Of a stretch of 64,000 nucleotides of DNA, positions 34,223 through 50,285 are shown piece after piece (the stretch's first letter is position 1; every line of letters starts with the position of its first letter). Origin of the DNA: Planctomycetota bacterium. Lineage in GTDB: Bacteria > Planctomycetota > Phycisphaerae > UBA1845. Position numbers and translations under genes: made by a program. The notes beneath the pieces are model-generated. The model had not been told where the DNA came from, ran no database searches, and saw only the letters and a list, made by a program, of their open reading frames with translations. Location: assembly GCA_029558835.1 (NCBI GenBank), contig JAKQDH010000066.1, positions 1 to 64,000 on the forward strand, given 5' to 3'.

Positions 34223-34479
34223 GACCGATCCCTCTGCAACTCCGGGGGCCAGAAGGGCGCCAACAGCGCCCAGCCATTGTCTGCTGTGCCTGCCGCCCGT
34301 GAAGCAACCGTTAGGTTCTGGAAAGCCGCGCACACCCTCAGCAGGTCGGAGCCGGCCAGGCGTGAAGCGGCACTGAACGCCGGCGACAGGCGGCCCCTTG
34401 CACACGTCGATGTAGGGCAGTTCAATATCGCACACAGGTGAGCGCGCCCCGTCCACCCGGAACCTTCGGGAGTACCACA

Positions 34480-35103
34480 GTGGCGTCTGTGAAGGACGAC
34501 CTCCTGATGCAAGCCATCGATGGTGACGCCGAAGCGCTGGCCGCCGTCCTGCGCCGAGAAGCGCCGGCCGTGCGGCAGCAGCTTGCCGGTCAGATCCCGG
34601 CCCGCTGGCAGTCCGTGCTCTCCGTCGACGACGTCATGCAGGAGACGTACGTCGACGCGTTCCTCGACATCGCCCGTTTTGAGCCGCAACAAGAAAGCTC
34701 GCTCACCGCCTGGCTGGTGTGCATCGCCAAACGCAATCTGCTCGACGCCATCCGCATGCTGGACACCGAGAAACGCGGCGGCAACTGGCACCGGCTCGAC
34801 CCGCCGGCCGGCGACGACTCATTCCTGGCCCTGTTCGAGCATCTCGGCGGCAGCGGGAGCACCCCCAGCAGGACCGCAGCCAGAGCGGAGGCGCGGAGCA
34901 TGCTGGGCCACGCCTTAGCCCAACTGCCACCGGCGTACCGCCAAGTTGTGGAGACGTACGACCTGGAAGGGCGGCCCGTAGAGGAAGTCGCCCAGAAGCT
35001 GAAACGCACCCCCGGGGCGGTTTACATGCTGCGGGCACGGGCTCATCGCCGGCTGGCGGAGCTCTTGGGGACGGCCTCCCAGTTTCTGACGAAATCGACG
35101 TGA
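34480..35103 (+). CDS. ECF-type RNA polymerase sigma factor
   Basis: A 207-residue sigma-70 family protein with region 2 (DDLLMQAIDGDAEALAAVL... through VDDVMQETYVDAFLDIARFEP...LTAWLVCIAKRNLLDAIR) and region 4 (ALAQLPPAYRQVVETYDLEG, then RTPGAVYMLRARAHRRLAELL). It lacks regions 1.1 and 3. GTG 34480 is chosen for the GGGAG 7 bases upstream; the frame is open to GTG 34438. The large kinase gene starts 215 bases downstream on the same strand, with an inverted repeat between. That pairing is common in planctomycetes, where kinase and ECF sigma act in one signalling pathway. Confidence 0.9.
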   Translation: MASVKDDLLMQAIDGDAEALAAVLRREAPAVRQQLAGQIPARWQSVLSVDDVMQETYVDAFLDIARFEPQQESSLTAWLVCIAKRNLLDAIRMLDTEKRGGNWHRLDPPAGDDSFLALFEHLGGSGSTPSRTAARAEARSMLGHALAQLPPAYRQVVETYDLEGRPVEEVAQKLKRTPGAVYMLRARAHRRLAELLGTASQFLTKST

Positions 35104-35184
35104 GTTCCGGCCGCCGCCTACGCTTGTCTCTTTGAGCAGACCGCGGTCCGCGTCGGAACCGCGGCGACGGAGGGCGTCGAGGAT

Positions 35185-35265
35185 GTAGCGTCGGCCCCTT
35201 GCGGCCGACGCAGGTTTCTCGGGGCGGCGCTAACAACCACGTCGCCCGCGGGGGGCCGACGCTAC
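35185..35265. repeat. interspersed repeat family B, copy upstream of the kinase gene
   Basis: The ends GTAGCGTCGGCC (35185) and GGCCGACGCTAC (to 35265) are exact inverted repeats. They enclose a second pair of arms (GCGGCCGACGC and CGTCGCCCGCG) in an 81-bp unit that ends 53 bases before the kinase start. Related sequences lie at 28081-28108 and 50028-50130. Confidence 0.75.
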
Positions 35266-35318: not shown

Positions 35319-38300
35319 ATGAGCGGTGAGCCGGACAGTGGGGCGCACAGCGACGCCGAGCAGAAGATGATCGAGGCGGCGCAGCGGGAGGCGGCGGAGG
35401 TGGCTGCGGCCGGGGGTCCTGCTCCACCGCTGCCGGCCGTACCCGGCTACAAGATCATCCGCGAGCTGGGCAAGGGCGGCATGGGGATCGTCTACGAGGC
35501 CCTCCAGGAGCAGCCCAAGCGCTCGGTGGCCTTGAAGGTGGTCCGCGGCGGGGCCTTCGTCGATGAGCATCGCCTGCGGCTCTTTCAACGCGAGATTCAG
35601 ACCCTCGCCCGCCTGAAGCACCCGGCCATCGCTGCCATCTACGAGGCCGGTCGCACCCAGGATGGCCAGCACTTCTTCGCCATGGAGCTGATCCGGGGCA
35701 CGCCGCTGACCCAGTATGCCGGGCAGCATCAACTGGACCTCGCCGCTCGCCTGGAGCTGTTCCGCCGGATTTGCCAGGGCGTCAACTATGCTCACCAGCG
35801 CGGCGTGATTCATCGGGACCTGAAGCCCTCCAACATCCTGGTCGACAGCGATGGCAACCCGAAAATCCTGGACTTCGGGCTGGCCCGCATCACCGATGCG
35901 GACGTGGCCGTCACCACGACGATGACGGCCGTCGGCAACGTCATCGGGACGCTGGCCTACATGAGTCCCGAGCAGGCCCGGGGCAACCCCGACGAGATCG
36001 ACGTGCGCAGCGACGTCTACTCGCTGGGCGTCATTCTCTACGAGTTGACCACTGGGCAACTGCCCTACGACCTCAATCGTCTGATGTTGCACGAGGCCGT
36101 GCGCGTGATCTCCGAGGACGTGCCGCACCGGCCCAGCACGATCAACCGCATTCTGCGCGGGGACGTCGAGACGATCGCGCTGAAAGCGCTGGAGAAGGAG
36201 CCGTCGCGGCGCTACGCGCACGCGGCCGCGTTGGCGGAAGACGTTGAGCGCTATCTGACCGGCCGAGCGATCCTGGCCCATCCGCCCAGCGCCCTCTACC
36301 AGTTCCGCAAGCTGGCCGCCCGTTACAAGCTGCCGCTGGCCTTTGCCGTGACGGTCTTCGTGCTGGTGACAGTCTTCGCCGTGGTAGCCACCGTGCAGGG
36401 TGTGCGCATCGCCGAGCACCGCGATCGGATCATCGAGCAGCAAGGGCAGATCCTCACCGAACGCGACCGCGCGGTCGCAGCAGGGCAGGAAGCCCAGCGC
36501 GAGCGTGATCGAGCTCTGGCCGCTGAGACAGCGGCCCGCGACGCGCAGGAAGCTGAGGTCGGGCAACGCCGGCTCGCCGAACAAAGGACCCGCGAAACCG
36601 AAGAGCACGCCGAGAACCTCCGGCGGAGCTTGTACGCCAACCGGATTGCGCTCGCGCAGATGGCGTGTGAGCGCGAGGACACGAAACGGGCGAAGGAACT
36701 CCTGGCCCAATGTCCGGACGACCTGCGCGGCTGGGAATGGTACCATCTGCTGTACGTGGCCGATCGAAGCCAGCGTACTTTCTACCTCGACGAGCAGGCT
36801 TCGACCATGGCGGCAAGCGCCGACGGAACGCAGATCGCCGTTGTCACCAGGGGTAACGATGTCAAGATACTTGACGGGATCACGGGGGAGACGCTGCGCG
36901 TCTTCAAAGGGCAGGCAGGGCAGTTGCATTCGATCGCTTTCAGTCCCGACGGCAAGAGCCTCGCCGTGGGCGGGAACGAAGTGGCACTCAAGGTGTGGGA
37001 CACACTAACGGGGCGCGAGCAATTGAGCGTCCGCGGCAAAGATCTCTGGTGGTATGCCCAGTGCCTGCTGCTCAGTTTCTCTGGCGATGGTCGCCAGCTC
37101 ATTGGCGTCTGGGCTTGCGGCCCGGAGCCAGGACCGATGAGGCGACTACTTAAGGTCTGGGACTTGCCCACGAACCAGGAGCTGGAACACTTGCTGGATG
37201 ACCGCGCCGCGTTCCAAGATGTGTTGTCAGGTCTCGACCACAGACAGCCACTCGCGCACCGCGACAATAAGCTGTTTGTGATTCGGACCGAACCGAATGA
37301 GCGCATGGCGACAACCCCCGACGACATCCTGGTCGAGAGGATCGTGTTGACCTGCAGCGGGAATCGCTTCATGCAGACATTTCCATATGACCCTGTGGAT
37401 AATGAGGAATACCCAATACAGGATGCGCGAACCGGAGAGGAATCGACACGTCTTGTCACCCCTGGCACAATGACGGCTGCGGCTTTCTCGCCAGACGACA
37501 CTCGAGTTGCCACAGGTAGCCGTGATGGCAGCATACACGTCTGGGACGCGAGCACGGGCCAGGAGTTGCATACACTGCGTGGACATTTGGGGACTGTCCG
37601 GGCTTTGGCATTCGGCCAGAACGGGACAAAAGTTACTTCGCTTGCTACGGACAAAACAATTAAGGTGTGGGAAACTGAGCATGCCCCCAAGTTGGACATC
37701 CACGGTTCCAGGGGCTACGGTGGATTCGCGCTAAGTCCGGATGGTGTGCACTTAGTGCTGCGGGAACCTGTCACCAACGCGATGACAATCTGGGATACGG
37801 TATTGAACTGCGAAGTCACAACGTTGTCGGGATGCCCGGCGACGGCATCGCCCCTTGAACGCGGCGCGATCAGCTTGAGCTCTGGCTCGCTGGCGTATTA
37901 CCTTCCCTGCGAACGTGCCGCGTGGAGTCCCGATGGCCGATGGATTGCCGCGTCTGACGCTGAGGCCGGCACGACATGCCTATGGGATGCACGGTCCCAT
38001 CAGGAAGTCGCCGTACTCGGCTTCGGGGCCGACTTCTTGGGCTTCGACCAGCGTGGCCGCGTGCTAGCCCTGGCTTCGCGCGCGCGTCGTGAGACCACCT
38101 TCGCCGACGGCTCGAAGAGTATCGTGGTTGGTTCACCGCGCGATCCAGAGGTGCGCACAGTATACCCCGCGGATCCGTCTGCCTCTCAGGAGCCGTCGAC
38201 AACCGAATCACCCGCCGTGATCCGCATTTGGGACATTACGTCCGCGCAAGTGATTTCATCCGTGCCGTGTCCCGCCGAGATCCGGTCTTTCGCTTTGAGC

Positions 38301-40184
38301 CCCGACGGGCGGGACGTCGCATGGGCGAGCGGTCCGTGCATAGAGGTCTGCGACGCAAGCAGCGGTGAAACACTTCTGTCCCGGACGGGTGATCAGACAA
38401 TGCTCGCTGTTGCTTTTGTCGGAGGCGGCGATGTGATCATGGGCGTCGGTTCAGACGGGACTATCGCAACCTGGAGCGCGGCCACAGGAGAAGCCCTAGC
38501 TACTCTTGACAGGCATTTGCCGGCGCTCGGCGATTCATATGTTGCAATCAGCCCGGACGGGAAGCGGGTTGCCTGTGGAAGACGACGTGGTGAAGGTGGA
38601 ATCCGTCTCTATGAAGTGACCAGTGGGCTTGAGCTTCTGACCCTTGAAAAAGGTGATTTCTTCGCGGCGGGGCTGACCTTCGGGCCAAGTGGGAATCAAC
38701 TGCTGTCCGTTGGGTGCGGCTGCACACGCGTGTGGCAAGCAGCAACGACGCGGCAAGCTGCAGCCTTCATGCGCTGGGCTGACGCCAAACAGCGCCGTCC
38801 GGAAATCAAACAGGGCGCGCAGGACGTAGTTGACGCCGCATTTCGCCACGTGGACACGGTGGACGAAGCGATTCACTACATACAGAGCGATGACTCGCTG
38901 AGCGACTCTGTGCGCGAACGCGCCCTGCTGCTAACCCAGGATCACTCTCACGAAATGGAAGAGACCAACGACAGCGTCTGGTTGGAACTCTCAGGTGGCG
39001 AGCGGAGCAGATGGACGCCCAGTCTCCCGCAAGGGTCGCCTTTGCGGGAAGAGCGTCCTCGGGTAATGGCTGACTTCGAACCGCAGTTGGACGCAGCTCT
39101 AAGCCTCTGCCGTTTCGATCCGAAAAGCGGGGTATATCGTAGAACGCTGGGCGTCGCTCAGTACCGCGTGGGCAGATACGCGGATACCTTGTCCACGTTG
39201 ATTCGTGCAGACGAAATCAACTCTGCAAACGGCGACAGGTACCCGGCGGATGTCGCCTTTCTGGCGATGGCGCATTATCGCCTCGGGCACCTTGAGCAAG
39301 CCCAGGCGGAGCTTGAGCAGTTGCGTCAGCTTATGCAGGACCCGAAGTACGCCCAGGATGAGGAGGCGCAGGGGTTCCTCAAGGAAGCGGAAGACTTGAT
39401 CGGCACCGCCGGGTGGCGGGGTTACGGGCAGCGCTACGCCATCATCGTGATGGGCGGGCACGCTCCTGCGGACACCAAGCATTACGGCTGGTACTGGAAC
39501 GACACCTTCGGCATGTACGAGGAACTGAAGGCGCGCGGGTTCAGCGACGAGAACATCTACTTCCTCTCGTATGGACCGAAGGCCGCGGAGCATCCCGAGG
39601 CCGTGGACGCCGAGAGTACGACGGAGAACATCCGGGCCGCCTACCGCTGGGCACGCGAGAAGTGCACCGCGGACGATCTGCTGTACGTCTACTGGGTCGA
39701 TCACGGCGGGGCGAATGACTTCCAGACCTATGACGGCAACATCACGCACGCGGAGCTGGGCGAGCTAACGAAGGCGATCACGGCCCGGCAGATCATCGGG
39801 GCCTACAACCCGTGCTTCAGCGGCGCGGTGATCGACGATCTCTCGCGCGAGGGCGTCATTACGATCACCTCGCAGGATGCCACGCACGGCAACTCCTGGG
39901 GCTGGGCCGGCCAGTGGCGGGAGGCGCTGCGGGGTGGCACAGCCGACGACCGTAGTGATACTAACGGCGACGGCCATATCTCCATGACGGAAGCCTACGC
40001 GTGGGTCGCCGCGAAATCCCAGGCCGCCGGCGAGCACTCGTTGATGGACGACAACGGCGACGGCCTGGGCAGCGAATGGCAGACGCCGGCGTTCGACCCC
40101 CAGGACCCGGCCAAGGACGGCTCCCGCGGCAAGTCGTACTCCCTCGACGGCTGGTTCCAGCCTCCCGATTCTCAAAGTCACTAA
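35319..40184 (+). CDS. Ser/Thr kinase-WD40 protein with C-terminal caspase-like protease domain
   Basis: A 1621-residue membrane protein. Residues 43-310 form a complete Hanks kinase: GKGGMGIVYE, VALK (K73), HRDLKPSN (about 164-171), DFGLA (about 184-188) and an APE-like SPEQ. A single TM segment (about 340-362, LPLAFAVTVFVLVTVFAVVA) is followed by a coiled coil (about 370-460), then WD40-type repeats to about 1140 (VWDTLTGRE, IHVWDASTGQELHTLRGH and others). A short TPR-like part (about 1250-1350) precedes a domain that starts RYAIIVMGGHAP (about 1371). It carries VYWVDHGG (His 1462) and IGAYNPCFSG (Cys 1499), the dyad of C13/C14-type cysteine proteases, and ends with EF-hand-like DTNGDGHIS and DDNGDGLG. 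ATG 35319 has GGAGG 6 bases upstream. Confidence 0.9.
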   Translation: MSGEPDSGAHSDAEQKMIEAAQREAAEVAAAGGPAPPLPAVPGYKIIRELGKGGMGIVYEALQEQPKRSVALKVVRGGAFVDEHRLRLFQREIQTLARLKHPAIAAIYEAGRTQDGQHFFAMELIRGTPLTQYAGQHQLDLAARLELFRRICQGVNYAHQRGVIHRDLKPSNILVDSDGNPKILDFGLARITDADVAVTTTMTAVGNVIGTLAYMSPEQARGNPDEIDVRSDVYSLGVILYELTTGQLPYDLNRLMLHEAVRVISEDVPHRPSTINRILRGDVETIALKALEKEPSRRYAHAAALAEDVERYLTGRAILAHPPSALYQFRKLAARYKLPLAFAVTVFVLVTVFAVVATVQGVRIAEHRDRIIEQQGQILTERDRAVAAGQEAQRERDRALAAETAARDAQEAEVGQRRLAEQRTRETEEHAENLRRSLYANRIALAQMACEREDTKRAKELLAQCPDDLRGWEWYHLLYVADRSQRTFYLDEQASTMAASADGTQIAVVTRGNDVKILDGITGETLRVFKGQAGQLHSIAFSPDGKSLAVGGNEVALKVWDTLTGREQLSVRGKDLWWYAQCLLLSFSGDGRQLIGVWACGPEPGPMRRLLKVWDLPTNQELEHLLDDRAAFQDVLSGLDHRQPLAHRDNKLFVIRTEPNERMATTPDDILVERIVLTCSGNRFMQTFPYDPVDNEEYPIQDARTGEESTRLVTPGTMTAAAFSPDDTRVATGSRDGSIHVWDASTGQELHTLRGHLGTVRALAFGQNGTKVTSLATDKTIKVWETEHAPKLDIHGSRGYGGFALSPDGVHLVLREPVTNAMTIWDTVLNCEVTTLSGCPATASPLERGAISLSSGSLAYYLPCERAAWSPDGRWIAASDAEAGTTCLWDARSHQEVAVLGFGADFLGFDQRGRVLALASRARRETTFADGSKSIVVGSPRDPEVRTVYPADPSASQEPSTTESPAVIRIWDITSAQVISSVPCPAEIRSFALSPDGRDVAWASGPCIEVCDASSGETLLSRTGDQTMLAVAFVGGGDVIMGVGSDGTIATWSAATGEALATLDRHLPALGDSYVAISPDGKRVACGRRRGEGGIRLYEVTSGLELLTLEKGDFFAAGLTFGPSGNQLLSVGCGCTRVWQAATTRQAAAFMRWADAKQRRPEIKQGAQDVVDAAFRHVDTVDEAIHYIQSDDSLSDSVRERALLLTQDHSHEMEETNDSVWLELSGGERSRWTPSLPQGSPLREERPRVMADFEPQLDAALSLCRFDPKSGVYRRTLGVAQYRVGRYADTLSTLIRADEINSANGDRYPADVAFLAMAHYRLGHLEQAQAELEQLRQLMQDPKYAQDEEAQGFLKEAEDLIGTAGWRGYGQRYAIIVMGGHAPADTKHYGWYWNDTFGMYEELKARGFSDENIYFLSYGPKAAEHPEAVDAESTTENIRAAYRWAREKCTADDLLYVYWVDHGGANDFQTYDGNITHAELGELTKAITARQIIGAYNPCFSGAVIDDLSREGVITITSQDATHGNSWGWAGQWREALRGGTADDRSDTNGDGHISMTEAYAWVAAKSQAAGEHSLMDDNGDGLGSEWQTPAFDPQDPAKDGSRGKSYSLDGWFQPPDSQSH

Positions 40185-40255
40185 CGCAACCCTCCTCCCT
40201 GCCAGGGAGGGGTCGGGGGAGGGTCGAAGCGCCGGGGCATCCCCCCCTCACCCTA

Positions 40256-40285
40256 CCCTCTCCCCCAAAAGGGGAGAGGGGTTTT
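40256..40285 (+). terminator. intrinsic terminator after the kinase-protease gene
   Basis: A 10-bp stem (CCCTCTCCCC at 40256-40265 with GGGGAGAGGG at 40271-40280), loop CAAAA, then GTTTT. It is 72 bases past the stop. The same sequence type recurs at 58213-58241 without the T-run, so this is also a member of an interspersed repeat. Confidence 0.75.
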
Positions 40286-40689
40286 GTTAGGCGCTCTCGA
40301 CGAAATCCACGTGAGTTCGGCCCGCCGCCTACGCTTGTCTCTATGAGCACAGGCCGTGGTCCACCCCGAAACCCGGGGCAATGAAGCGACGGCCGGTCAG
40401 GCGCCGAAAGCGGCCGGTCGCGCGCAAAGGCCGACCGGCTAGGCGCAAAGAGCAACCGGGCCCCGCAGAAAGCGGCCGGTCAGGCACGGAAGGCCGGCGA
40501 TGTCCCCGTCGAAGCCAGGTCGGCGGTGTCCAATCTGAGGGGGGACTGGATCGAGCGAGGCCTCTTGCGAAAAAGGAGTACCGTCATGCCCCCAGCGAAA
40601 CCGACGTGGAAAGGGAACAGAACCTCGCCTGCGGAGGACGCTGGGGGCGCTCACCGGCAGGCCGACCTCAAGTGGGTCACCCGCGGGGG
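40286..40689. other. intergenic region with short GGCCGGTC tandem words
   Basis: No gene is supported. A run near 40380-40500 repeats the word GCGGCCGGTC or close variants four to five times with 'CGCAAAG' between. An Arg-rich open frame spans it (40381-40788) but has no ribosome site and its composition is that of the repeat. Confidence 0.5.
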
Positions 40690-40935
40690 GTGCGTGTGCG
40701 TCAGACCAGAAGGCCCCGCAATCCGGAAAAAAGAAAAAAAACGGCCGACGCGCGTAAGATCGCGTGTCCCCGAGGCACTGTCAGGTGACGCGACCAGGAG
40801 AATCGCGCCGGCCGGCTGCGGTGCCCGGCCTGAGGGCGCGTTGACGCCCTTCCCTCTGAGGACAAAGGGCCCCGCCTGATGGCCCGGGCAGGTCCAGACC
40901 GCTCACAGAACCAGGGCCGGTAGGGAGGACTCCCG
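40690..40935 (+). repeat. conserved leader cassette, copy 1 (before the propeller gene)
   Basis: This leader matches 42455-42693 and 46441-46588. The shared blocks in order are GTGTGCGTCAG..., GACGCGCGTAAGATCGCGT, CGACCAGGAGAATCGCGCCG, GCCCGGCCTGAGG, GAGGACAAAGGGCCCCGC and GATGGCCCGGGC, then GTAGGGAGGACT before the ATG. GGCC-rich segments can form hairpins. It ends at the start codon, so it is the transcribed leader or promoter of the gene. Confidence 0.75.
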
Positions 40936-42390
40936 ATGTACACATCTCCCCAAAATACTCACGTGTCGTATAGGTTGCTGTCCGGTTGGGTCTTCTTCGG
41001 ATTCCTTGCCGCAACGAACGCCGGGGCGGGCAGAATTCCCGGCACGCCGGCGTACCATGCGCCATCGGATGTGAGTGCGGGCGAGGCCCTTGGCGTGCTG
41101 GCCCAGGACTGTGACTGGTTGCCGGGCGAGAGCGTGGGGACCAATGCGCCTGCATGCGCTGTCACTACGTGGGACCCCGATGGGCCCGGGCCGCAGGCCG
41201 AACTGCTTGTTGTCGGGGGGGACTTCACAGTTGCGGGCGACATCTTCGCAAACAAGATCGCGGCGTGGGACGGCAGCGCCTGGCACCCACTGGGGTCGGG
41301 TATGAGCGGTGCTGACTACCCGCGGGTGTACGCCCTGACAGCCTACAACGGCGAGCTGATCGCGGGGGGCCTGTTCACGACCGCTGGCGGCGTCACGTGC
41401 AACTACATTGCCCGCTGGAACGGCAGTGCGTGGCAGCCGCTGGGGTCCGGGATGAACAACGCCGTATGCGCCTTGGTGGTCTGCAACGGCGAACTGACTG
41501 CAGGGGGCTACTTCACGACCGCCGGCGGCGTGACGTGCAACAGGATCGCCCGCTGGAATGGCGGTGCGTGGCAGCCGCTGGGGTCGGGGATGAACAGCGG
41601 GGTGTACGCCCTGACGGTCTACAATGGCGAGCTCATCGCCGGGGGCAATTTCACGACCGCCGGCGGCGTCACGTGCAACTACATTGCCCGCTGGAACGGC
41701 AGCGCCTGGGAGCCACTGGGGTCAGGGATTGCCGGTGCTAACCCACACGTATCCGCGCTGTCGGTCTACAATGGCGAGCTGATCGTGGGCGGCGGGTTCT
41801 CGACCGCCGGCGGCGAGCAGTGCAGGATGATCGCTCGTTGGAACGGCAGCGCCTGGCAGCCAGTGGGGGGGGAAATGAACGACCACGTGCTTGCCCTGAC
41901 CGTCTACAACGGCGAGTTGATCGCGGGGGGCGTGTTCGGGAACGCCGGCGGCGTCACGTGCAGCAGAATTGCCCGCTGGAACGGCGGCGCCTGGCAGCCG
42001 CTGGGGTTGGGCATGAACAACTGGGTACTGGACCTGACGGTGCACAACGGCGAGCTCATCGCCGGGGGCTACTTCACGACCGCCGGCGGGTACGTCTCGT
42101 GCTACTGGGCGCGCTGGGCTTGCGATGTCACGTGCGACCTCGACGCCGACGGCGACGTGGACGAAGACGACTTCTGGATTCTCGTCAGCGCGTTCGGCAC
42201 CTGCACGGGCGAACCCGGCTTCCTCTTTGAGGCTGACTTCGACGGCGACGGCTGCATCACTCTCTTCGACTATGGCCGCTGGCTGCAGTGCTACGTCGAC
42301 ACCAACGGCCGGGACTTCGTCCCGCCGATTGTCCGCCCCGCGCAGGCGGTGCCTGTCGACACCGGTCGTGTTGCCGACAGAGATGATTAA
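40936..42390 (+). CDS. secreted 46-residue-repeat beta-propeller protein with dockerin-like tail
   Basis: A 484-residue exported protein. The N-terminus (MYTSPQNTHVSYRLLSGWVF...ATNAGAG) is the signal peptide and shares the cassette with the M14 protein. Six units of 46 residues (138 bp; repeat starts at about 41332, 41470, 41608, 41755, 41893 and 42031) read ALTVYNGELIAGGxFTTAG followed by GVTCNYIARWNGSAWQPLGS, a Kelch-like blade pattern. The tail (CDLDADGDVDEDDFWILVSA and ADFDGDGCITLFDYGRWLQC) is dockerin-like. GGAGGACTCCCG precedes the ATG. Function unknown; probably exported cell-surface or matrix protein. Confidence 0.85.
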   Translation: MYTSPQNTHVSYRLLSGWVFFGFLAATNAGAGRIPGTPAYHAPSDVSAGEALGVLAQDCDWLPGESVGTNAPACAVTTWDPDGPGPQAELLVVGGDFTVAGDIFANKIAAWDGSAWHPLGSGMSGADYPRVYALTAYNGELIAGGLFTTAGGVTCNYIARWNGSAWQPLGSGMNNAVCALVVCNGELTAGGYFTTAGGVTCNRIARWNGGAWQPLGSGMNSGVYALTVYNGELIAGGNFTTAGGVTCNYIARWNGSAWEPLGSGIAGANPHVSALSVYNGELIVGGGFSTAGGEQCRMIARWNGSAWQPVGGEMNDHVLALTVYNGELIAGGVFGNAGGVTCSRIARWNGGAWQPLGLGMNNWVLDLTVHNGELIAGGYFTTAGGYVSCYWARWACDVTCDLDADGDVDEDDFWILVSAFGTCTGEPGFLFEADFDGDGCITLFDYGRWLQCYVDTNGRDFVPPIVRPAQAVPVDTGRVADRDD

Positions 42391-42454
42391 CTCGGACGGC
42401 GGCGCGCGCCACTGCCGTCCCGGTACGCCGACCTCGGGCGGGTTGCCTGCGGGG

Positions 42455-42693
42455 GAGTACGTGTACGTCAGGCCAACGAGCGCCGCAACCCGGAAGAAAA
42501 ACAGCAGACGCGCGTAAGATCGCGTCCGCCTGAAGCACTACCAGATGCGGACAGCAAAGGAATACGGCGGTCGGCCGTGTGGCCGGACCGAGGACGCGCT
42601 GACGCAGGTTTTTCTGAGGCCTGAGGGCCCCGCTGGATGGCCCGGGCGGGAGTACGCCCTCGTTGAAACCAGCGGCGGTACGGAGAAACACCA
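42455..42693 (+). repeat. conserved leader cassette, copy 2 (before the M14 gene)
   Basis: It aligns with the leader at 40690-40935 block by block: GTGTACGTCAG, GACGCGCGTAAGATCGCGTC, GGACGCGCTGACGCAGG and GAGGGCCCCGCTGGATGGCC. It ends at the ATG of the carboxypeptidase gene. Confidence 0.75.
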
Positions 42694-45600
42694 ATGTGCA
42701 CATCTCTCCACAAGACACACGTGTCATGTTGGTCGGTGTTAGTTTGGGTTTCCTTCGGGTTCTTCGTTACAGCGAACGCCAGCACGGGCGGGATCCCCGG
42801 CACGCCGGTGTACCACGCACCATCGGATGTGGGTGTGGGCGAGGGCTCTACCGTGCTGGCCCAGGATTGTGACTGGTTGCCGGCCAAGGGCACGCCGGGG
42901 ACCAACGGGTACGTCTATGCGACTACTACATCGGACCCCGATAGCCCGGGACCGCAGCCGGAGCGGCTGGTAACCGGGGCTCCGGCGTACGGCGCCGCCA
43001 AGCTGCTCACGCCGACTCACCCGGTGGGCTACGAGGGCTACCAGTTGGTTCGCATCGAGGTGGCTGGCGAGGCGCAACTCCAGACGCTGCTGGCGCTCGA
43101 TGCTGCGGCGCGCGACCTGGAGATCTGGTCGGAGGTGGTCCGCGTCGGGCCGGTGGAAGCTCGCGTCTCGCCCGCTCACCGTCGGGCCCTGGAGGCCGCC
43201 GGCTTGCGCTACGAGGTTCTGATCGAAGACCTGCAAGAGCACTACAACACCATTTACGGCGTGGGAGGACCTGAGAGTCGCGGCTTCTTCGATGTCTACC
43301 GAACGTACGACGAGCACGTCGCCTTCCTGAATAACCTGGCAGCTACGTACCCAAACCTAGCCCAGATGGTCAACATCGGCACGTCGGTCCAGGGGCGCAC
43401 GATGTGGGCGATTCGGATCACAGGCCCAGGTGAGAACAAGCCCGGTGCCATGTATCACGGCGCGCAGCACGGCAACGAGATCATGGGCGCCTGCGTGGTC
43501 GCCTATGCCGCCGAGTACCTCCTGACGCAGTATGGGCAGATCCCCGAGATCACGGAGCTGGTGGACGAGGTCGAGTGGTATCTGCTGCCGATCATGAACC
43601 CCGACGGGTACGTCCAGGGTAACCGCTACAATGCCAACGGGTACGACCTGAACCGCAACTGGGGCGGTCCCGGCTGCTACCCCAATCCGTTCTCGCAGCC
43701 GGAAACCGCCGCCATGCGCGATTTCTTCCTCGCGCACCCGAATGTGCGGGCCTACATTGACTTCCACAGTGCCGGCTACATGATCATGTGGCCTTGGGGG
43801 TACACTTCCGCCTGGTGTCCGGACCACTGGACTTTCAACGACATAGCCCAGGAACTGCGCGCGCGCATCCTGGTCGTGCGCGGTACGGACTATGGCCACC
43901 TGGGACCGATCTACAGCACCATCTACCCCGTCCAGGGCGGATCGGTCGACTACACCTACGGCGTGCACGGAATCTGCGCGCTGACCTTCGAGCTGGGCTA
44001 CGCCCATCTTATGCCCCCTGACGAGATCCTCCCGACGTGCCAGGAAATCTTCCCCGCGATGATCTACCTCGCCGCCTGGCTTCCCGCCTGGGTTCAGGAC
44101 TGCAACGGCAACGGGGTCCACGACCCGTTCGATATCGCCTGGGGAAGCAGCCTCGACTGTAACGAGAACGGGATACCTGACGAGTGCGATCTGGCCGAGG
44201 GGAGCAGTCCGGATACAGACGGCAACGGCGTCCCGGACGAGTGTGAGGTTGTACGTCTGTACGTGGACGCCCAGGCCACGGGGGCGGGCCATGGGCTGGA
44301 CTGGGAGAACGCTTGCCCGCAGTTGCGTCGCGCTCTGGCAATGGCCAGTCACCTGGGTAACCTCGTCGCGGAGATCTGGGTGGCGGAAGGCACCTATCGC
44401 CCTGGGACGGCCCGCGATGCCTCATTTCGCTTAACCAGCGGCGTGGGCCTGTACGGCGGGTTCGCCGGCGGTGAGCAGGAGCTTAGCCAACGAGATCCCT
44501 ACGCGCACCCGACGGTTCTTTCCGGTGACCTCCTCGAAAATGACGCACCCAACGATAGTGATTGCTGCCGGCCGCATTATGGCCCCGGATGTCACGACGA
44601 CGCTTGCGAGGCCTTGGTCTGCGCCGAGGACCCCTCCTGCTGTTCCGACTACTGGGGCAGGTGGTGCGAAGAACTGGCCTTTGAGCTCTGCGACGGCGTC
44701 TGCGGTGGGCTTGAGGACAACGCTCTAACGGTTGTGATGGCGGCCAACTGTGACGAGACCACGGTACTCGATGGGTTCGTTGTCACCGCGGGGTATGGTT
44801 GCGACGAGGACGGCGATTCGTACTACACCCCGGGACTGCGCATCGCCGGATCCGCGCCAACATGGTCCAGCAGCCTTCTTGTGGCCAACTGCACCTTCAC
44901 GAAGAACCGCAGTTCGTGCCCTGCGGTGGCGATTGTCAGTGGCACGACGATGTCTCCTAGTTCCTTCACCCATTGCGCCTTCACGCTGAATGGAGGAGCA
45001 CCGACGTCCTCGGATCGTCGCGGCGGAGGCGCGCTCGGGGCGCGTCCGCTCGCCTGCAGCGTAGTCGTTAACAACTGCATCTTCACTGGGAACTGGGGAA
45101 TTGCCTCGCCCTACAGCCCCATCTTTTGCGGTGATGGGCGACCGGTGCACCTGCGTGCTGATGCTGTTCTTGCCAACTGCACGCTCGTCCACAACTGCAC
45201 TTTCCCACCGAATCCAGGAGACGAGGCGAGGGGAGGAGCAGGACTGTCGTATGTCGGTGGCCCCATCACCAACTGCATTCTCTGGGGGAACCGCGATTCC
45301 GTCGGTACTGACGAGACGGCGCAAATCCGCGATATGCAGCCAAACTACTCCTGCGTCCAGGGCTGGACGGGTAACCTCGGTGGCGTCGGGAACTTCGGGG
45401 ATGATCCGCTCTTTGTGAACGCGCTGGGCCCTGACGGTGTGGCCGGTTCGCCCGATGATGACGTGCATCTGCTCCCGCTGTCACCCTGCATCGACACGGG
45501 TGACCCGACGTACGACTTCAGCCTCGAGCCCGAGCCCGACGGCGGGCGCATCAACATCGGCGCCTACGGCAACACGCCGGAGGCCGCCACGCGCGGCTGG

Positions 45601-45897
45601 CTGTACATCGAAGACTACGCCCTGGTCGCGCAGCGCCGGGTCGGCCGGACTACGTTCGAGTATGAGATGTCGGTGATTCTGAGCAATCGCAGCGATCGGG
45701 ACGCCCCCAACGTGATCCTCGAGCTGCTGGCCGTGCCGGAGGACGTGACCATCATCAGCGGCGCCGAGCTCACCGTCGCCCCGGTGGCTGCCGGCGCGAC
45801 CGTCACCAGCGTTACGAACTTCGTCATCCAGGTGGACCGCACCACGCCGGTCTCGCCGTTGGGCTTCAGTTGGCGCGTAGTGCAGATGGGAGATTGA
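42694..45897 (+). CDS. M14-family zinc carboxypeptidase with Cys-rich and beta-helix regions
   Basis: A 1067-residue exported protein. The first 60 residues (MCTSLHKTHVSCW...GIPGTPVYHAPSDVGVG) share the N-terminal cassette. The M14 catalytic domain covers about residues 205-465: HGAQHGNE (H259, E262), DLNRNW (Arg 321), FHSAG (H358) and TFELGY (E433), which are the zinc ligands and the substrate/catalytic residues. The next segment has thrombospondin-3-like DCNGNGVHD and DCNENGIPDECD loops. The remainder (about 530-1000) is a beta-helix-like region (VVNNCIFTGN, VANCTFTKN) with an inserted Cys-rich block (about 625-670). It probably trims extracellular peptides and binds carbohydrate. Confidence 0.9.
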   Translation: MCTSLHKTHVSCWSVLVWVSFGFFVTANASTGGIPGTPVYHAPSDVGVGEGSTVLAQDCDWLPAKGTPGTNGYVYATTTSDPDSPGPQPERLVTGAPAYGAAKLLTPTHPVGYEGYQLVRIEVAGEAQLQTLLALDAAARDLEIWSEVVRVGPVEARVSPAHRRALEAAGLRYEVLIEDLQEHYNTIYGVGGPESRGFFDVYRTYDEHVAFLNNLAATYPNLAQMVNIGTSVQGRTMWAIRITGPGENKPGAMYHGAQHGNEIMGACVVAYAAEYLLTQYGQIPEITELVDEVEWYLLPIMNPDGYVQGNRYNANGYDLNRNWGGPGCYPNPFSQPETAAMRDFFLAHPNVRAYIDFHSAGYMIMWPWGYTSAWCPDHWTFNDIAQELRARILVVRGTDYGHLGPIYSTIYPVQGGSVDYTYGVHGICALTFELGYAHLMPPDEILPTCQEIFPAMIYLAAWLPAWVQDCNGNGVHDPFDIAWGSSLDCNENGIPDECDLAEGSSPDTDGNGVPDECEVVRLYVDAQATGAGHGLDWENACPQLRRALAMASHLGNLVAEIWVAEGTYRPGTARDASFRLTSGVGLYGGFAGGEQELSQRDPYAHPTVLSGDLLENDAPNDSDCCRPHYGPGCHDDACEALVCAEDPSCCSDYWGRWCEELAFELCDGVCGGLEDNALTVVMAANCDETTVLDGFVVTAGYGCDEDGDSYYTPGLRIAGSAPTWSSSLLVANCTFTKNRSSCPAVAIVSGTTMSPSSFTHCAFTLNGGAPTSSDRRGGGALGARPLACSVVVNNCIFTGNWGIASPYSPIFCGDGRPVHLRADAVLANCTLVHNCTFPPNPGDEARGGAGLSYVGGPITNCILWGNRDSVGTDETAQIRDMQPNYSCVQGWTGNLGGVGNFGDDPLFVNALGPDGVAGSPDDDVHLLPLSPCIDTGDPTYDFSLEPEPDGGRINIGAYGNTPEAATRGWLYIEDYALVAQRRVGRTTFEYEMSVILSNRSDRDAPNVILELLAVPEDVTIISGAELTVAPVAAGATVTSVTNFVIQVDRTTPVSPLGFSWRVVQMGD

Positions 45898-45928
45898 TCG
45901 ACGGGCGCCCTCAAGCAGGAGACGGACC

Positions 45929-46441
45929 ATGATTCGTAGACGCAACCTTGCAGCACTGTTGCTGTCGATTCTGCTGCCGGCGTCCCTCTGCGCGGCCGCC
46001 CCCGTGAACATCTATTACGAAGCCACCCCGCTGGGCGGGAACGAATGGCAGTGCGTGTACGACGTCGCCAACAACTCGCTGGCGACGCCCATCGAGGAGT
46101 TCACGATCTGGTTTGCGCTCGGCCAGTACGCGCAACTGGCTCTGGAGACACCGGACCCGCCCGCCACCGCGTGGGACGAGCTGGTCGTCGAGCCCGATCC
46201 GCTCCTGCACGCCGATGGCTTCTACGATGCGCTGACGCTGGCAACCGGCATCCCTGCGGGCGAGCATCAGAGCGGTTTCACCGTCCGCTTCGAGTGGCTC
46301 GGGACGGGAGAGCCCGGCGGCCAGCCGTTTGAGATCATCGACCCGGTGACGTTCGGGACGATCTGGGCCGGCACCACGGTGCCCGAGCCCTCGACCGCAG
46401 GGTTGCTCCTGATCGCGCTCGCCTGGGCGTCTAAGAGGTGA
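45929..46441 (+). CDS. PEP-CTERM sorted secreted protein
   Basis: A 170-residue exported protein. The signal peptide is MIRRRNLAALLLSILLPASLCAAA. A short beta-rich domain has VYDVANNSLATPIEEFTIWF and a Trp/Gly-rich middle. The C-terminus is VPEPSTAGLLLIALAWASKR: a PEP motif, a hydrophobic segment and basic end, the classic exosortase substrate signal. No exosortase gene is in the window, so it must be elsewhere. It follows the M14 gene by 31 bases. Confidence 0.9.
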   Translation: MIRRRNLAALLLSILLPASLCAAAPVNIYYEATPLGGNEWQCVYDVANNSLATPIEEFTIWFALGQYAQLALETPDPPATAWDELVVEPDPLLHADGFYDALTLATGIPAGEHQSGFTVRFEWLGTGEPGGQPFEIIDPVTFGTIWAGTTVPEPSTAGLLLIALAWASKR

Positions 46442-46588
46442 GGCGACCAGAAGAACCGCGCCGGCCGGCCGGGGTGGCCGGCCTGAGGCCGCCTTAACGC
46501 ATGTCCTTATAGAGGACAGAGGGCCCCGCCGGATGGCCCGGGCGGGCGTACGCCGGCGACGAACCAGGACCACTAGGGAGGACTACCA
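46441..46588 (+). repeat. conserved leader cassette, copy 3 (before the truncated remnant)
   Basis: It matches copies 1 and 2: GGCGACCAGAAGAACCGCGC, GGTGGCCGGCCTGAGG, GAGGACAGAGGGCCCCGCCG and GATGGCCCGGGCGGGC, then CTAGGGAGGACTACCA before ATG 46589. It overlaps the PEP-CTERM stop codon region. Confidence 0.75.
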
Positions 46589-46738
46589 ATGCCCGCATTT
46601 CACCCTAATGCGCATGTGTTACACAGGATCCTGTTAGTCTCGGTTCCCCTCGGCTTTCTTGGTACAACGAATGTCGACGCAGGCGGCCTGCCGGGCGCCG
46701 GCGCAACGTCCGGTGCCGCATGGCCTACCCGCTCGGGC
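46589..46738 (+). pseudogene. truncated third cassette gene (signal peptide only)
   Basis: ATG 46589 opens MPAFHPNAHVLHRILLVSVP, then LGFLGTTNVDAGGLPGAG, homologous to the signal peptides of the propeller and M14 proteins (MYTSPQNTHVSYRLL... and MCTSLHKTHVSCWS...). After about 36 codons the similarity stops, and the reading frame continues only into the antisense of the PPDK-like gene whose stop is at 46740. The body of the gene is lost. Confidence 0.75.
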
Positions 46739-46739
46739 G

Positions 46740-49700
46740 CTACTTGGATGCGGCGTTGCCGCGGTTGCCTTGGGGGCCCACCGGCAGCAGTCGGGCGGCG
46801 TCGGTGACGGCGTCGATCTTGGCGGCGTAGCTGCTGCGTTGGGCGATGTCCTCGTCCGTGACCAGGTGCACGTCCAGCAGGCCGGCGGTACGGGCGCCGG
46901 TGCGCAGGTAGTTCATCTCGCTGAGGCAGAGGCTCCAACCCTCGAACCACTGCAGCAGCGCGGCCCGCTGCGCCTCGGTGCCGCGGAAGTGCACCAGCAG
47001 GTCGATGTCGCTGGCAGGGCCGGCCGTGGCGTTCTTGGTGCTGCCGAAGACGTACAACGCCACGACGCCGAAACGGGACGGCTCCAACTGCTCGGCCACG
47101 CGCTCCGCCATGCGCATCCGCCAGCGCCAATGGTCCTCCGGCTCGGTGCCCGCGTACGGGCGTCCGTCGGTAGCGGGCCTGGACGTGGAGGCCGGATCAG
47201 CCAGGATGCCCACGGCCTCCTCGAGATCAGCGTTCATCAACACCCGCAGAACCTTGCCCCGGGTCACCCGCGGCACGTCGATGACGCGCACGCAGTTCTC
47301 CAGGGCCGCGTATTCCGGCGCCACGCTGGAGAGCACGTTCGGCGATTGCGTCAGGAACTGGTGGTTGAAGATGATGCCTTCGTCGTCGGGATAGAGCGGC
47401 AGATAGCGAATGGACGCCTCCACCAGGTCCTGGAAGAAGTGCGTGCCGAAGGAAAGATCAGGAACGTAGTTGCCTTTCTTGCGCGCGATCTCAATGAGGA
47501 CGGCCGTGTTGTTGATGTCCGAGTAGGTCACTTTGACGCCGAGCTTCACGTCGCCGCGGCTGCCCCAGCGGCCCGGTCCCATGAGCACGAACTGGTGCTT
47601 GGGCAGCACGGCGTTGAGCTTGCCAACCGCCCGCCCGACGGCCACCAGGCCTTGCAGGTCGGCGATTTCGGCGTAGGCATCGGGATCGATGTAGACGATG
47701 TGGGTCACATCGGGCACCCGGCCGTTGGAGACATAGCGGTTAGCCGAGAAGATGATCTGTTCCCTGGACAGGTCCCGGGGAATGGCGGCCGGCATGGCCT
47801 GGGTGGTGTGGCTCTGGGCCCGGCATTGCAGGAGATACAGGTACTTGCCGTCGGAGGCAAACTCAATGTCCACCGGCGTGCCGAGACCGTCCTCGAGGGC
47901 CTGCAGCAGCGCGTGAATCTGCTTGATGAACGGGGTGCGTTGCACCAACCCGTTGCAGGTCACCACGACGTCGCGGGGGTCGCATTCGAGGTGCCCCCCG
48001 ACGGGCTCGCGGATGATGTCGCGGTCACACACGGAGACCAGTTGCCCGAGACCGGGCAGTTGGTGCCCGCCCTGGCGCAGGAAGTCGGTGACGGAAATCG
48101 TCTCAAAGGCGTTGTTATCGAGGTTGATGACGTCCAGTTGGGTCGGGGCATAGCGGATGACCTCATCAACGGTGACATTGACGCGCAGGCCCGGCTGCCC
48201 GGGGGCCAGCAGGATCGGATAATCGTCCGAGAGGCGGTCCACGGCCCGGGTGCCCAGGCCCGGTACGATCCGCACCAGCCCGTCCTCGCGTTTGATGCGC
48301 GGGGACCAGCGGAACTCGTTGTGGCTGAAGGCCACGCCCGCGAAGGTCGGCAGGTAGTACTTGCCCACCCGTGTGCCGACCACCTCCTGGACCATGATGC
48401 CCATGCCTTCCTGGAAATCGAGGAGGTTGCGCTCGGCCCGGTATTCGATCGGGTCGGGGCTGAAGGTGGAGGCATAGACCTCGGCAATGGCGTCAAGGAG
48501 GGCGTTGAGGCGTTCCTGCTTGGAGCCCTGGTTGGCCAGGAAGAGGCTCTTGTACTTGCCGGAGAAAGCCGCCCCGATGCGGTCCTCCAGCAGGCTCGAG
48601 CTGCGCACGATCAGCGGCACCGTGCCGAACTCATCCATCGCCACCGAGAGCCCCTTGGCAATCTCCGGGGAGAACTGGGAGTGCTTGAACACCTGGATGA
48701 TGTGGGGGTATTCCTGGCGGACCTGGTTGATCTCCTTGTACTTCTGGGTGAAGACGTCCTCGAGGTTGTTGCGGTGGACGAAGTCGTGCAGGCCGTCGGA
48801 GGTGATGTACCAGCTCTGCGGCGTCCGCACCGCGGCGAACAGCTCGGCGTGCTCCTTTGACCGCCGAATGACCTGCTCCGCCAGGAACAGCCCCGAGCTC
48901 TTACCGCCGAGCTTGCCATATCCTCGCGCCGGGCAGATCAGGCGATGCAATAAGTCGTGGAAGCTCTCGATGGACACGTACTGCTTGGCGACGTTGATGT
49001 AGTCGAGTTGATCGGTCAGGAAGCGTCGGATCAGGGAGACGGCCAACCCCTTCAGGGTGGAAAGCGGCAGCTCGACCTCGCCGGGGGCGGTGTGGTGGAA
49101 GCGGGTCAGGGCGTCGCCGATTTCCACGAGCGAGGCATACGGCGTCTCCAGCGTGGTGACGAGGAAGCCCGCCCGGTCCTCCCGGATCCAGCGCTGGATG
49201 CAGGTGACGATCTCGCGGTTGCTGAGGTGCTGCGCGGCGATGCGAAACGTCTCTTCCACGAGGTTGGCCGAGGCGGGAAACTGCCCCTTGCGTCGGGGGC
49301 GGTTGCTTTCCATCTGGACCTGCTCGTCGCCGGTCTGCCCGCCGGCGCCGAAGCGGGCGAGCAGCGCCTGGGCCTCGCTCACCCCGCTCCAGCCCAGGTG
49401 GTTGAGCATCTTGCGGGTGACGCGGAGCAACAGACTCTGGTCGCTGTGCCGCAGCAGGTCGAGGATGACGCGCCACTCGCCGGTGCGCGACTTGGCCAGT
49501 TCCTCGCGGGCCGCCCGCCAGTCCTCCAGGGCGTCGACCAACACGCGGTGGACGATGAAGCTGCTGACCCGATCGGCGATCGTAATGATGAGCTTGCGTT
49601 CTTCCTTCAGGAACGGCCCTTCGTCGGCGTTGGGCATCTGCTGGGTGTAGAAGAGTTCGATCGAACCCACGCGGTCGCCCTGCACCACCACGTCGGCCGC

Positions 49701-49949
49701 CAGGACCCAGGGAGACTCCTCAAAGCGCGGCGAGGTGAACACTGAATCCCAGAGCTTGATGCGCACCTGGGCGATGTCCGGGTATTGCACGCCGGCCGGC
49801 AGCGCCGCGATGATCTTGGGAATGATGTCCTCCGCCGTTGCGTCCGGGCTGCTGACCAGCTTCTCGATCTCGTACAGGCAGTTGAGCTCCTTGGCCCGCT
49901 CGAGCAGGTCCGCGAGGATGTTCTCAATGGGTTTGCTCAGGTCGGTCAT
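46740..49949 (-). CDS. PEP/pyruvate-binding (PPDK-N) protein with GAF-like N-terminus and nucleotidyltransferase C-terminus
   Basis: A 1069-residue cytoplasmic protein. Residues about 10-150 form a GAF-like region. Residues about 340-700 resemble the ATP-grasp/PEP-binding domain of pyruvate, phosphate dikinase (LGGKSSGLFLAEQVI, VRSSSLLEDRIGAAFSGKYK, GIMVQEVVG). The phosphohistidine and TIM-barrel domains are missing, so it is not a full PEP synthase. Residues about 900-1060 have VVALYVFGSTKNATAG and SDIDLLVHF, the GSxxxG/DxD motif of minimal nucleotidyltransferases. Start ATG 49949. It shares this layout partly with the paralogue at 50286-52061. Function unknown; the fusion hints at regulatory nucleotidylation or PEP signalling. 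Confidence 0.85.
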   Translation of the reverse strand: MTDLSKPIENILADLLERAKELNCLYEIEKLVSSPDATAEDIIPKIIAALPAGVQYPDIAQVRIKLWDSVFTSPRFEESPWVLAADVVVQGDRVGSIELFYTQQMPNADEGPFLKEERKLIITIADRVSSFIVHRVLVDALEDWRAAREELAKSRTGEWRVILDLLRHSDQSLLLRVTRKMLNHLGWSGVSEAQALLARFGAGGQTGDEQVQMESNRPRRKGQFPASANLVEETFRIAAQHLSNREIVTCIQRWIREDRAGFLVTTLETPYASLVEIGDALTRFHHTAPGEVELPLSTLKGLAVSLIRRFLTDQLDYINVAKQYVSIESFHDLLHRLICPARGYGKLGGKSSGLFLAEQVIRRSKEHAELFAAVRTPQSWYITSDGLHDFVHRNNLEDVFTQKYKEINQVRQEYPHIIQVFKHSQFSPEIAKGLSVAMDEFGTVPLIVRSSSLLEDRIGAAFSGKYKSLFLANQGSKQERLNALLDAIAEVYASTFSPDPIEYRAERNLLDFQEGMGIMVQEVVGTRVGKYYLPTFAGVAFSHNEFRWSPRIKREDGLVRIVPGLGTRAVDRLSDDYPILLAPGQPGLRVNVTVDEVIRYAPTQLDVINLDNNAFETISVTDFLRQGGHQLPGLGQLVSVCDRDIIREPVGGHLECDPRDVVVTCNGLVQRTPFIKQIHALLQALEDGLGTPVDIEFASDGKYLYLLQCRAQSHTTQAMPAAIPRDLSREQIIFSANRYVSNGRVPDVTHIVYIDPDAYAEIADLQGLVAVGRAVGKLNAVLPKHQFVLMGPGRWGSRGDVKLGVKVTYSDINNTAVLIEIARKKGNYVPDLSFGTHFFQDLVEASIRYLPLYPDDEGIIFNHQFLTQSPNVLSSVAPEYAALENCVRVIDVPRVTRGKVLRVLMNADLEEAVGILADPASTSRPATDGRPYAGTEPEDHWRWRMRMAERVAEQLEPSRFGVVALYVFGSTKNATAGPASDIDLLVHFRGTEAQRAALLQWFEGWSLCLSEMNYLRTGARTAGLLDVHLVTDEDIAQRSSYAAKIDAVTDAARLLPVGPQGNRGNAASK

Positions 49950-50027
49950 GATGGCCCTCGCAACTGTCCGGGTGCTGCGCCCATCGGCGATGGTGTGGCT
50001 CGCCGGCGGCAGCGTCCCTCACCGGCG

Positions 50028-50265
50028 GTGGCGTCGCCCCCCCGTGGCCGACGCCGGACGCCGCGCAGCATCGTCATTTCACATCGCAACGTCGGCGTCT
50101 CCTGTGTCGCCCGCGGGGGGGCGACGCTGCGCTGCTGCACAGGACCGCACCAAGGGGAAACCGCCGGGGTGGCATGCCCAAGCCGAAGGCGCCAGCATGC
50201 GGTAACGAACGGCGGCCTGTCGGTTGCGGGGGAGCATGGCGGCGCTGCGCTTGGCCATGCCACCC
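50028..50265. repeat. repeat family B and family A copies, back to back
   Basis: Family B (about 50028-50130) has GTGGCGTCGCCCCCCCGTGG and a mirrored GTGTCGCCCGCGGGGGGGCG. Family A follows (about 50140-50265) with both arms: GGGTGGCATGCCCAAGCCGA... and GCATGGCGGCGCTGCGCTTG.... These fill the whole 336-base gap between two PPDK-like genes, which are both on the minus strand. Confidence 0.75.
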
Positions 50266-50285
50266 GCTCCCCACCTGTGGTTGCC

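What the first reader, a model, noticed from the sequence alone, without database searches (positions are those of the whole stretch)
40690..46738. Three copies of a leader plus signal-peptide cassette before unrelated proteins
The leader (about 200-250 nt) and the first 35-60 codons are shared by a propeller protein, an M14 carboxypeptidase and a truncated third gene, while the downstream parts are unrelated. A mobile 5' cassette that donates promoter, leader and secretion signal would be a route to new secreted proteins. The GGCC-rich, hairpin-forming leader may also be a regulatory RNA.
Basis: partly seen in the sequence, partly recalled or inferred. Interest (0 to 1): 0.55.

Follow-up and report, generated by a model that had tools for sequence, protein, structure and literature searches.

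The report
Secretion-signal cassette reused before unrelated proteins
In one bacterial genome, the front end of one secreted-protein gene (promoter region, long untranslated leader, export signal) appears to have been copied and fused in frame onto other, unrelated secreted proteins, a bacterial form of shuffling protein front ends, with no sign so far of a self-moving element.

Summary
The three window copies (A, B, C) have a fourth, unlinked copy D on another contig of the same genome, before an NlpC/P60-like (C92) hydrolase. A and D form one gapped alignment of 795 columns (promoter-like block, about 590-nt leader, signal peptide, first mature codons). Copy A fuses this 5' end, at the signal-peptide cleavage region, to a propeller protein whose seven paralogues carry other signal peptides. 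Copy B carries the same 5' end plus about 42 propeller residues, fused to an M14 carboxypeptidase whose relatives carry their own short signal peptides. Copy C is a remnant. I read this as 5'-terminal duplication and in-frame fusion, like terminal reassortment of type III effectors but for apparently Sec-exported proteins. Of the four copies only D and A have the promoter-like block. I found no mobile element, and no copy beyond chance in 396 other genomes of the class or 50 of the family (the sets overlap). The leader diverges less than synonymous sites, but folding and covariation do not support a structured RNA. New variant of a known kind; the relatives are Planctomycetota, mostly Phycisphaerae.

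The parts
34438..35103 (+). ECF-type sigma factor gene (best NCBIfam match TIGR02984, Planctomycetaceae-specific subfamily, below its cut-off); its 3' end overlaps the shared promoter-like block E
35066..35172 (+). Block E: promoter-like block shared with A (81% over 88 columns) and D (77% over 95 columns), from the end of the ECF sigma gene into the gap before the kinase gene
35319..40184 (+). Ser/Thr kinase with WD40 repeats, upstream neighbour of copy A
40299..40386 (+). Promoter-like block of copy A (core ACGTGAGT...ACGCTTGTCT at 40309-40340); the first 75 nt differ from D by 21%, the least of the segments compared
40387..40935 (+). Long untranslated leader of copy A; aligned with the leader of D throughout, with one gap region near 40423-40463
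40936..42390 (+). Gene A: residues 1-53 cassette (signal peptide + PGTPxxxxPSxVxxG), from residue 56 (base 41101, AQDCDWLPG) a DUF5122-type propeller protein
42420..42693 (+). Leader of copy B, truncated at its 5' side (no promoter-like block)
42694..45897 (+). Gene B: residues 1-53 cassette, 56-97 propeller-derived, then an M14 zinc carboxypeptidase with propeptide (relatives match from residue 86-113 on)
45929..46441 (+). PEP-CTERM protein gene; its last 31 bases (LIALAWASKR and stop) lie inside cassette copy C
46411..46588 (+). Leader of copy C
46589..46807 (+). Copy C signal-peptide codons and remnant frame of 72 codons; homology to A ends at about 46712 and the frame runs into the convergent PEP-synthase-like gene 46740-49949

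Best explanation
The shared stretch is the 5' end of a secreted NlpC/P60-like (C92) hydrolase gene of type D: promoter region, about 590-nt leader, signal peptide and the first strand of its catalytic domain. It was duplicated within the genome and fused in frame to other secreted proteins. First event: the D-type 5' end replaced the native signal peptide of a propeller protein (gene A), joining at the cleavage region AQ-DCDWLPG. Second event: the 5' part of an A-like gene (partial leader, cassette, first about 42 propeller residues) was duplicated beside it and replaced the signal peptide of an M14 carboxypeptidase (gene B). Copy C is a later or failed copy with no body. The expected effect is that the recipients keep an export signal and A gains the donor's promoter and leader; B probably depends on transcription from A, since it starts 303 bases after A on the same strand and lacks the promoter-like block. 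Shown: homology, joints, in-frame fusion, intact M14 motifs. Inferred: direction donor to recipient, order of events, promoter activity, export.
For: Alignments A-D, B-A, C-A. Four leader copies in the genome at E <= 0.1. D residues 44-55 SNVRVGDLLFCE match NlpC/P60 chains (SNVKRGDLVFFG in 3npf, E 0.014; MepS from residue 41, E 0.016) and the Pfam C92 match, above its cut-off, starts at residue 46; the cassette end in A and B (PSDVSAGEALG, PSDVGVGEGST) is then a broken piece of that domain, which makes a D-type gene the donor. Five propeller paralogues compared at DNA level match A only from the cleavage region on, and all seven paralogues read have other N-termini. In the family search, M14 relatives of B occur in 44 of 50 other genomes and no listed match from another genome starts before residue 86, while residues 1-97 match own gene A and residues from 48-53 to 97 or more match own propeller paralogues. 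Of 11 distinct M14 loci read (14 rows, three loci twice), 10 have a start codon 27-33 codons before the shared part. HGNE, DFHSAG and FELGY are intact in B (that these are catalytic is recalled).
Against: No relative of D outside this genome keeps its N-terminus: in 396 other class genomes three match and in 113 other order genomes one, all in the PKD-like tail only, so the direction rests on the domain boundary, whose structure matches are weak. B's propeller-derived segment is about as close to paralogue C153 (87% over 54 nt) as A's is (84% over 62 nt), so B may come from a sister of A. The genome is a 224-contig assembly with 3.4% contamination, and D is on another contig. No expression or secretion data; no signal-peptide predictor was run. 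The model of D (mean pLDDT 44) added nothing.
Confidence: 0.76

Rival explanations
1. Ordinary tandem duplication of whole genes: A, B and C are copies of one gene whose bodies diverged or decayed.
For: A, B and C lie in one 6-kb block on the same strand; C is a remnant.
Against: The body of B is an M14 peptidase with relatives in 44 of 50 other family genomes and unrelated to the propeller of A; homology of A and B stops at 41218/42979, in mid-gene; D is on another contig with a third kind of body.
Confidence: 0.06
2. A mobile element or recombination cassette carries the leader and signal peptide and inserts before genes.
For: Copies at two loci before unrelated genes.
Against: No inverted repeats of 30 bases or more in 36000-52000; four copies of different extent, 24-43% different in the proximal leader; no match in plasmids or phages by distant blastn; the promoter pattern has no exact match in the genome or viral collections (own genome left out there); no copy beyond chance in relatives. 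Target-site duplications were not looked for.
Confidence: 0.07
3. The leader is a conserved structured regulatory RNA and is the unit under selection; the signal peptide only travels with it.
For: Leader distance is below the synonymous distance in 6 of 6 pairs, bootstrap intervals excluding 1 in 4 of 6; in remnant C the leader is better kept than the codons.
Against: No Rfam match in the leaders; folding z-scores of the proximal leaders 0.55, -0.61, -0.28, -1.55 and of the full leaders of A and D -1.96 and -0.32; covariation term is a penalty and 3 of 34 pairs show a change on both sides; for A-B the leader differs more than the first 36 codons (0.335 against 0.259).
Confidence: 0.2
4. An antigenic- or phase-variation system in which bodies are recombined behind one expressed 5' end.
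For: One copy with the promoter-like block (A) beside copies without it (B, C) recalls expression-site systems.
Against: A, B and C differ by 24-34% in the proximal leader and 26-37% in the first 36 codons, so there is no recent exchange; the bodies are different proteins, not variants of one antigen.
Confidence: 0.03

Closest known systems
Terminal reassortment of type III effectors (Stavrinides, Ma and Guttman 2006; the paper is not held; seen as cited in passages of PMC6460904 and PMC7406222)
   Same: An N-terminal export signal combined with unrelated effector bodies to give chimeric genes (that upstream regulatory sequence goes with it there is recalled, not read)
   Different: Here the signal looks like a Sec signal peptide (by eye), the genome is a planctomycete, the copied part includes a 590-nt leader, and pieces of the donor's domain and of the first recipient travel along
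Paralogy and domain shuffling in Planctomycetes (passages of PMC8567305)
   Same: Duplication and domain shuffling named as sources of new proteins in this phylum
   Different: The passages read speak of domain combinations, not of a transferred promoter-leader-signal unit
NlpC/P60 superfamily, C92 (YaeF/YiiX) hydrolases
   Same: The body of D matches PF05708 and PF00877 above their cut-offs
   Different: Only the first strand, altered, survives in A and B
Expression-site variation of surface proteins (Borrelia Vmp type; search listing only)
   Same: One 5' end used for different bodies
   Different: No recent exchange between copies; bodies unrelated

Membership tests
Terminal reassortment (chimeric secreted proteins by N-terminal exchange) | Same N-terminal export region on non-homologous bodies | tested here: met
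Terminal reassortment (chimeric secreted proteins by N-terminal exchange) | Recipients exist elsewhere without the exchanged N-terminus | tested here: met
   Seven propeller paralogues in the own genome; M14 relatives in 44 of 50 other family genomes, 11 loci read
Terminal reassortment (chimeric secreted proteins by N-terminal exchange) | Upstream regulatory sequence travels with the N-terminus (feature recalled) | tested here: inconclusive
   Promoter-like block present in D and A, absent from B and C; that it is a promoter is not shown
Terminal reassortment (chimeric secreted proteins by N-terminal exchange) | Type III secretion substrate | not tested
   N-termini look like Sec signal peptides by eye and by a crude hydropathy scan; no predictor was run and no secretion system was searched for
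Known structured RNA leader (Rfam) | Match to a family at its gathering score | tested here: not met
   (40200-46900): five matches, all below gathering scores and none within the leaders proper of A, B or C; D was not scanned
Known structured RNA leader (Rfam) | Covariation in support of a common fold | tested here: not met
   covariation term +2.88; four sequences only, so low power
Mobile genetic element | Defined ends, inverted repeats, several near-identical copies | tested here: not met
   target-site duplications not examined
ECF sigma-dependent regulon | Same promoter motif before several genes including the sigma operon | tested here: inconclusive
   Three copies of the block, E, A, D, but the similarity extends into the sigma gene's coding end, so common descent explains it as well

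The most novel reading that the evidence does not exclude
The promoter and 590-nt leader form a transferable regulatory module that puts a secreted protein fused behind it under one ECF sigma factor/kinase pathway: the block between the ECF sigma gene and the kinase gene is the same as the one before A and D, and the leader, which diverges less than synonymous sites, acts in the mRNA (export, translation or localisation).
Probability: 0.15. Interest if true: 0.65.

Novelty: new variant of a known kind. Interest (0 to 1): 0.45.

Why it matters
How new secreted proteins gain an export signal and a promoter in bacteria is seldom seen at several stages at once. Here a putative donor, two recipients, unfused relatives of both recipients and a failed copy can all be read, with a piece of the donor's domain left in the recipients. 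It makes a testable case that front ends of secreted genes are exchanged as units outside type III effectors, and it points to a long conserved 5' leader of unknown function.

Tried and rejected
Rfam with a permissive threshold over 40200-46900: nothing in the leaders. Coding in the leader: differences between A and D show no steady codon phase; a 97-codon frame with a ribosome-site-like motif upstream exists in A only, so a leader peptide is not supported. Weak covariance-model hits: three in other family genomes and four in 396 other class genomes at E 0.006-0.01, about the number expected by chance (one hit is common to both). All six loci were read on the strand of the hit: none shows a cassette-like N-terminus within 50 codons after the hit, and most lie under long open frames (444 codons on the same strand in L062, 556 on the opposite strand in L060; 222-302 codons in L061, L133-L135 give less clear cases). 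One hit of 16.2 bits in L054 was not followed. Weak matches in the own genome to A's leader or N-terminus (E about 0.02 to 0.6; among them C62:75424, C173:46811, C82:33442) were not followed beyond the frames printed. A second shared front end before propeller genes (C27:90717, C134:18028, C195) is ordinary paralogy: these bodies, and that of the extra hit C161:47404, are all propellers. Synteny: of six relatives with full-length orthologues of the convergent gene I fetched five; A, B and the PEP-CTERM protein had no tblastn match at E 1e-4 there. Structure model of D: mean pLDDT 44, not used. A first rate comparison with copy C read in the wrong frame was replaced.

Full report
What is there. 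Copies A (leader 40299-40935, gene 40936-42390), B (leader 42420-42693, gene 42694-45897) and C (46411 to about 46712) are confirmed by alignment. Searches of the whole assembly (5.69 Mb, 224 contigs) with A's leader and N-terminus found a fourth copy, D, on contig C62. A and D give one gapped alignment of 795 columns at 62% (40299-41084 against C62:147859-148604; 229 bits; best of 100 dinucleotide shuffles of D 38.3 bits). A covariance model built from the proximal leaders of A-D finds these four and no others in the genome at E <= 0.1.

The bodies. Gene A is a DUF5122-type propeller protein, gene B an M14 carboxypeptidase with its propeptide, gene D an NlpC/P60-superfamily C92 hydrolase with a PKD-like tail. 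Copy C has no body; its frame runs 72 codons, the last part antisense to the convergent gene 46740-49949.

Where the joints are. Five propeller paralogues compared with A at DNA level match it only from the signal-peptide cleavage region (just before AQDC, A residue 56) onward. Two more, on C27 (AQAC) and C161, have propeller bodies and other N-termini. B residues 1-53 match the cassette; residues from 48-53 to 97 or more match propeller paralogues of this genome. M14 relatives occur in 44 of 50 other family genomes; no listed match from another genome starts before residue 86, and the ten best from other genomes start at 99-113. Of 11 distinct M14 loci read (14 rows), 10 have a start codon 27-33 codons before the shared part; L076 does not. 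B therefore reads: cassette, first stretch of a propeller, M14 enzyme. HGNE, DFHSAG and FELGY are intact (that these are the catalytic motifs is recalled).

Direction. D's SNVRVGDLLFCE aligns with NlpC/P60 proteins of known structure (3npf SNVKRGDLVFFG, E 0.014; MepS from residue 41, E 0.016), and the Pfam C92 match, above its cut-off, begins at residue 46. The corresponding end of the cassette in A and B (PSDVSAGEALG, PSDVGVGEGST) is followed by other proteins, so I take the 5' end to come from a D-type gene. Against this: no other genome examined keeps D's N-terminus; the matches, in 3 of 396 other class genomes and 1 of 113 other order genomes, cover the tail only.

Promoter-like block. The first 75 nt from 40299 differ between A and D by 21%, against 30-46% in the other segments compared. 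The same block lies at 35066-35172, from the end of the ECF sigma gene into the gap before the kinase gene (81% to A over 88 columns, 77% to D over 95). A pattern with up to 3 mismatches finds these three places in the genome. A shorter pattern has no exact match in the collection of 84,980 other species or in viral contigs. The similarity runs into the sigma gene's coding end, so descent from that region explains it at least as well as a shared regulon. B and C lack the block.

Is the leader under selection? Leader distances are below synonymous distances in 6 of 6 pairs; bootstrap intervals exclude 1 in 4 of 6 (A-C, A-D, B-C, C-D), with up to 34 of 500 replicates dropped because the distance was undefined. 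By raw difference the proximal leader is better kept than the first 36 codons in 5 of 6 pairs; A-B is the exception (0.335 against 0.259). Gap placement favours such values: A against 60 shuffles of D's leader gave a median of 0.54 and a minimum of 0.42, so B-D (0.43) lies inside that range and A-D (0.39) is near it. Constraint is thus plausible for A-C and B-C and uncertain for D. Folding is not unusual, and covariation does not support a common fold, with low power from four sequences. No conserved reading frame was found in the leader.

Distribution. No match in 59 relatives by DNA, none beyond chance in 50 other family genomes or 396 other class genomes by covariance model (the sets overlap; the model search uses strict filters), none in plasmids or phages by distant blastn. 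None of the genomes listed shares the genus of this one. Named relatives of the M14 body are four Planctomycetota assemblies, three of them titled Phycisphaerae or Phycisphaerales, and one Myxococcales assembly at 28%. At the locus itself, five relatives with the convergent gene lack A, B and the PEP-CTERM gene, one of them with only about 1 kb to look at.

Reading. This is best read as duplication and in-frame fusion of a 5' gene end that carries an export signal, seen at several stages in one genome. It works like terminal reassortment of type III effectors (passages in PMC6460904 and PMC7406222; the 2006 paper was not held). Searches for the same idea for signal peptides (10 of 10 papers listed; 15 of 45; 8 of 19; open-licence PubMed Central papers only) listed, by title and abstract start, no paper on natural exchange of this kind in bacteria. 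I saw listings only, apart from passages of the papers named, so this is a weak negative.

Noticed in passing
46411-46441: The last 31 bases of the PEP-CTERM gene (encoding LIALAWASKR and the stop) lie inside cassette copy C, so leader-derived DNA supplies part of its membrane segment and basic tail.
   Followed up: partly
42503-42530 (minus strand): In copy B a GC-rich hairpin followed by a run of T on the minus strand looks like an intrinsic terminator for antisense transcription; similar A-rich plus hairpin sequence occurs in A and D by eye.
   Followed up: partly
40256-40280: Terminator-like hairpin with T-run between the kinase gene and the promoter-like block of A (such sites are no more frequent in this region than in shuffles).
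   Followed up: no
35185-35265: Long inverted repeat by eye (GTAGCGTCGGCCCC ... GGGGGCCGACGCTAC) right behind block E, before the kinase gene; looks like a small repeat element.
   Followed up: no
L049 730-5906 and 9457-10455: Copy D lies a few kilobases from ribosomal protein, nusG and tuf-like genes (named by eye from the frames).
   Followed up: no
35319-40184: The kinase-WD40 protein ends in a stretch that looks by eye like a caspase/legumain-type peptidase domain (YAIIVMGGHAPADTKHYGWYWND).
   Followed up: no
own genome C27 (three genes), C134, C153, C161, C195: Seven propeller paralogues; the six compared are 51-68% identical to A or each other, with at least two different signal-peptide/upstream types, so front ends of this family seem to change often.
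   Followed up: partly
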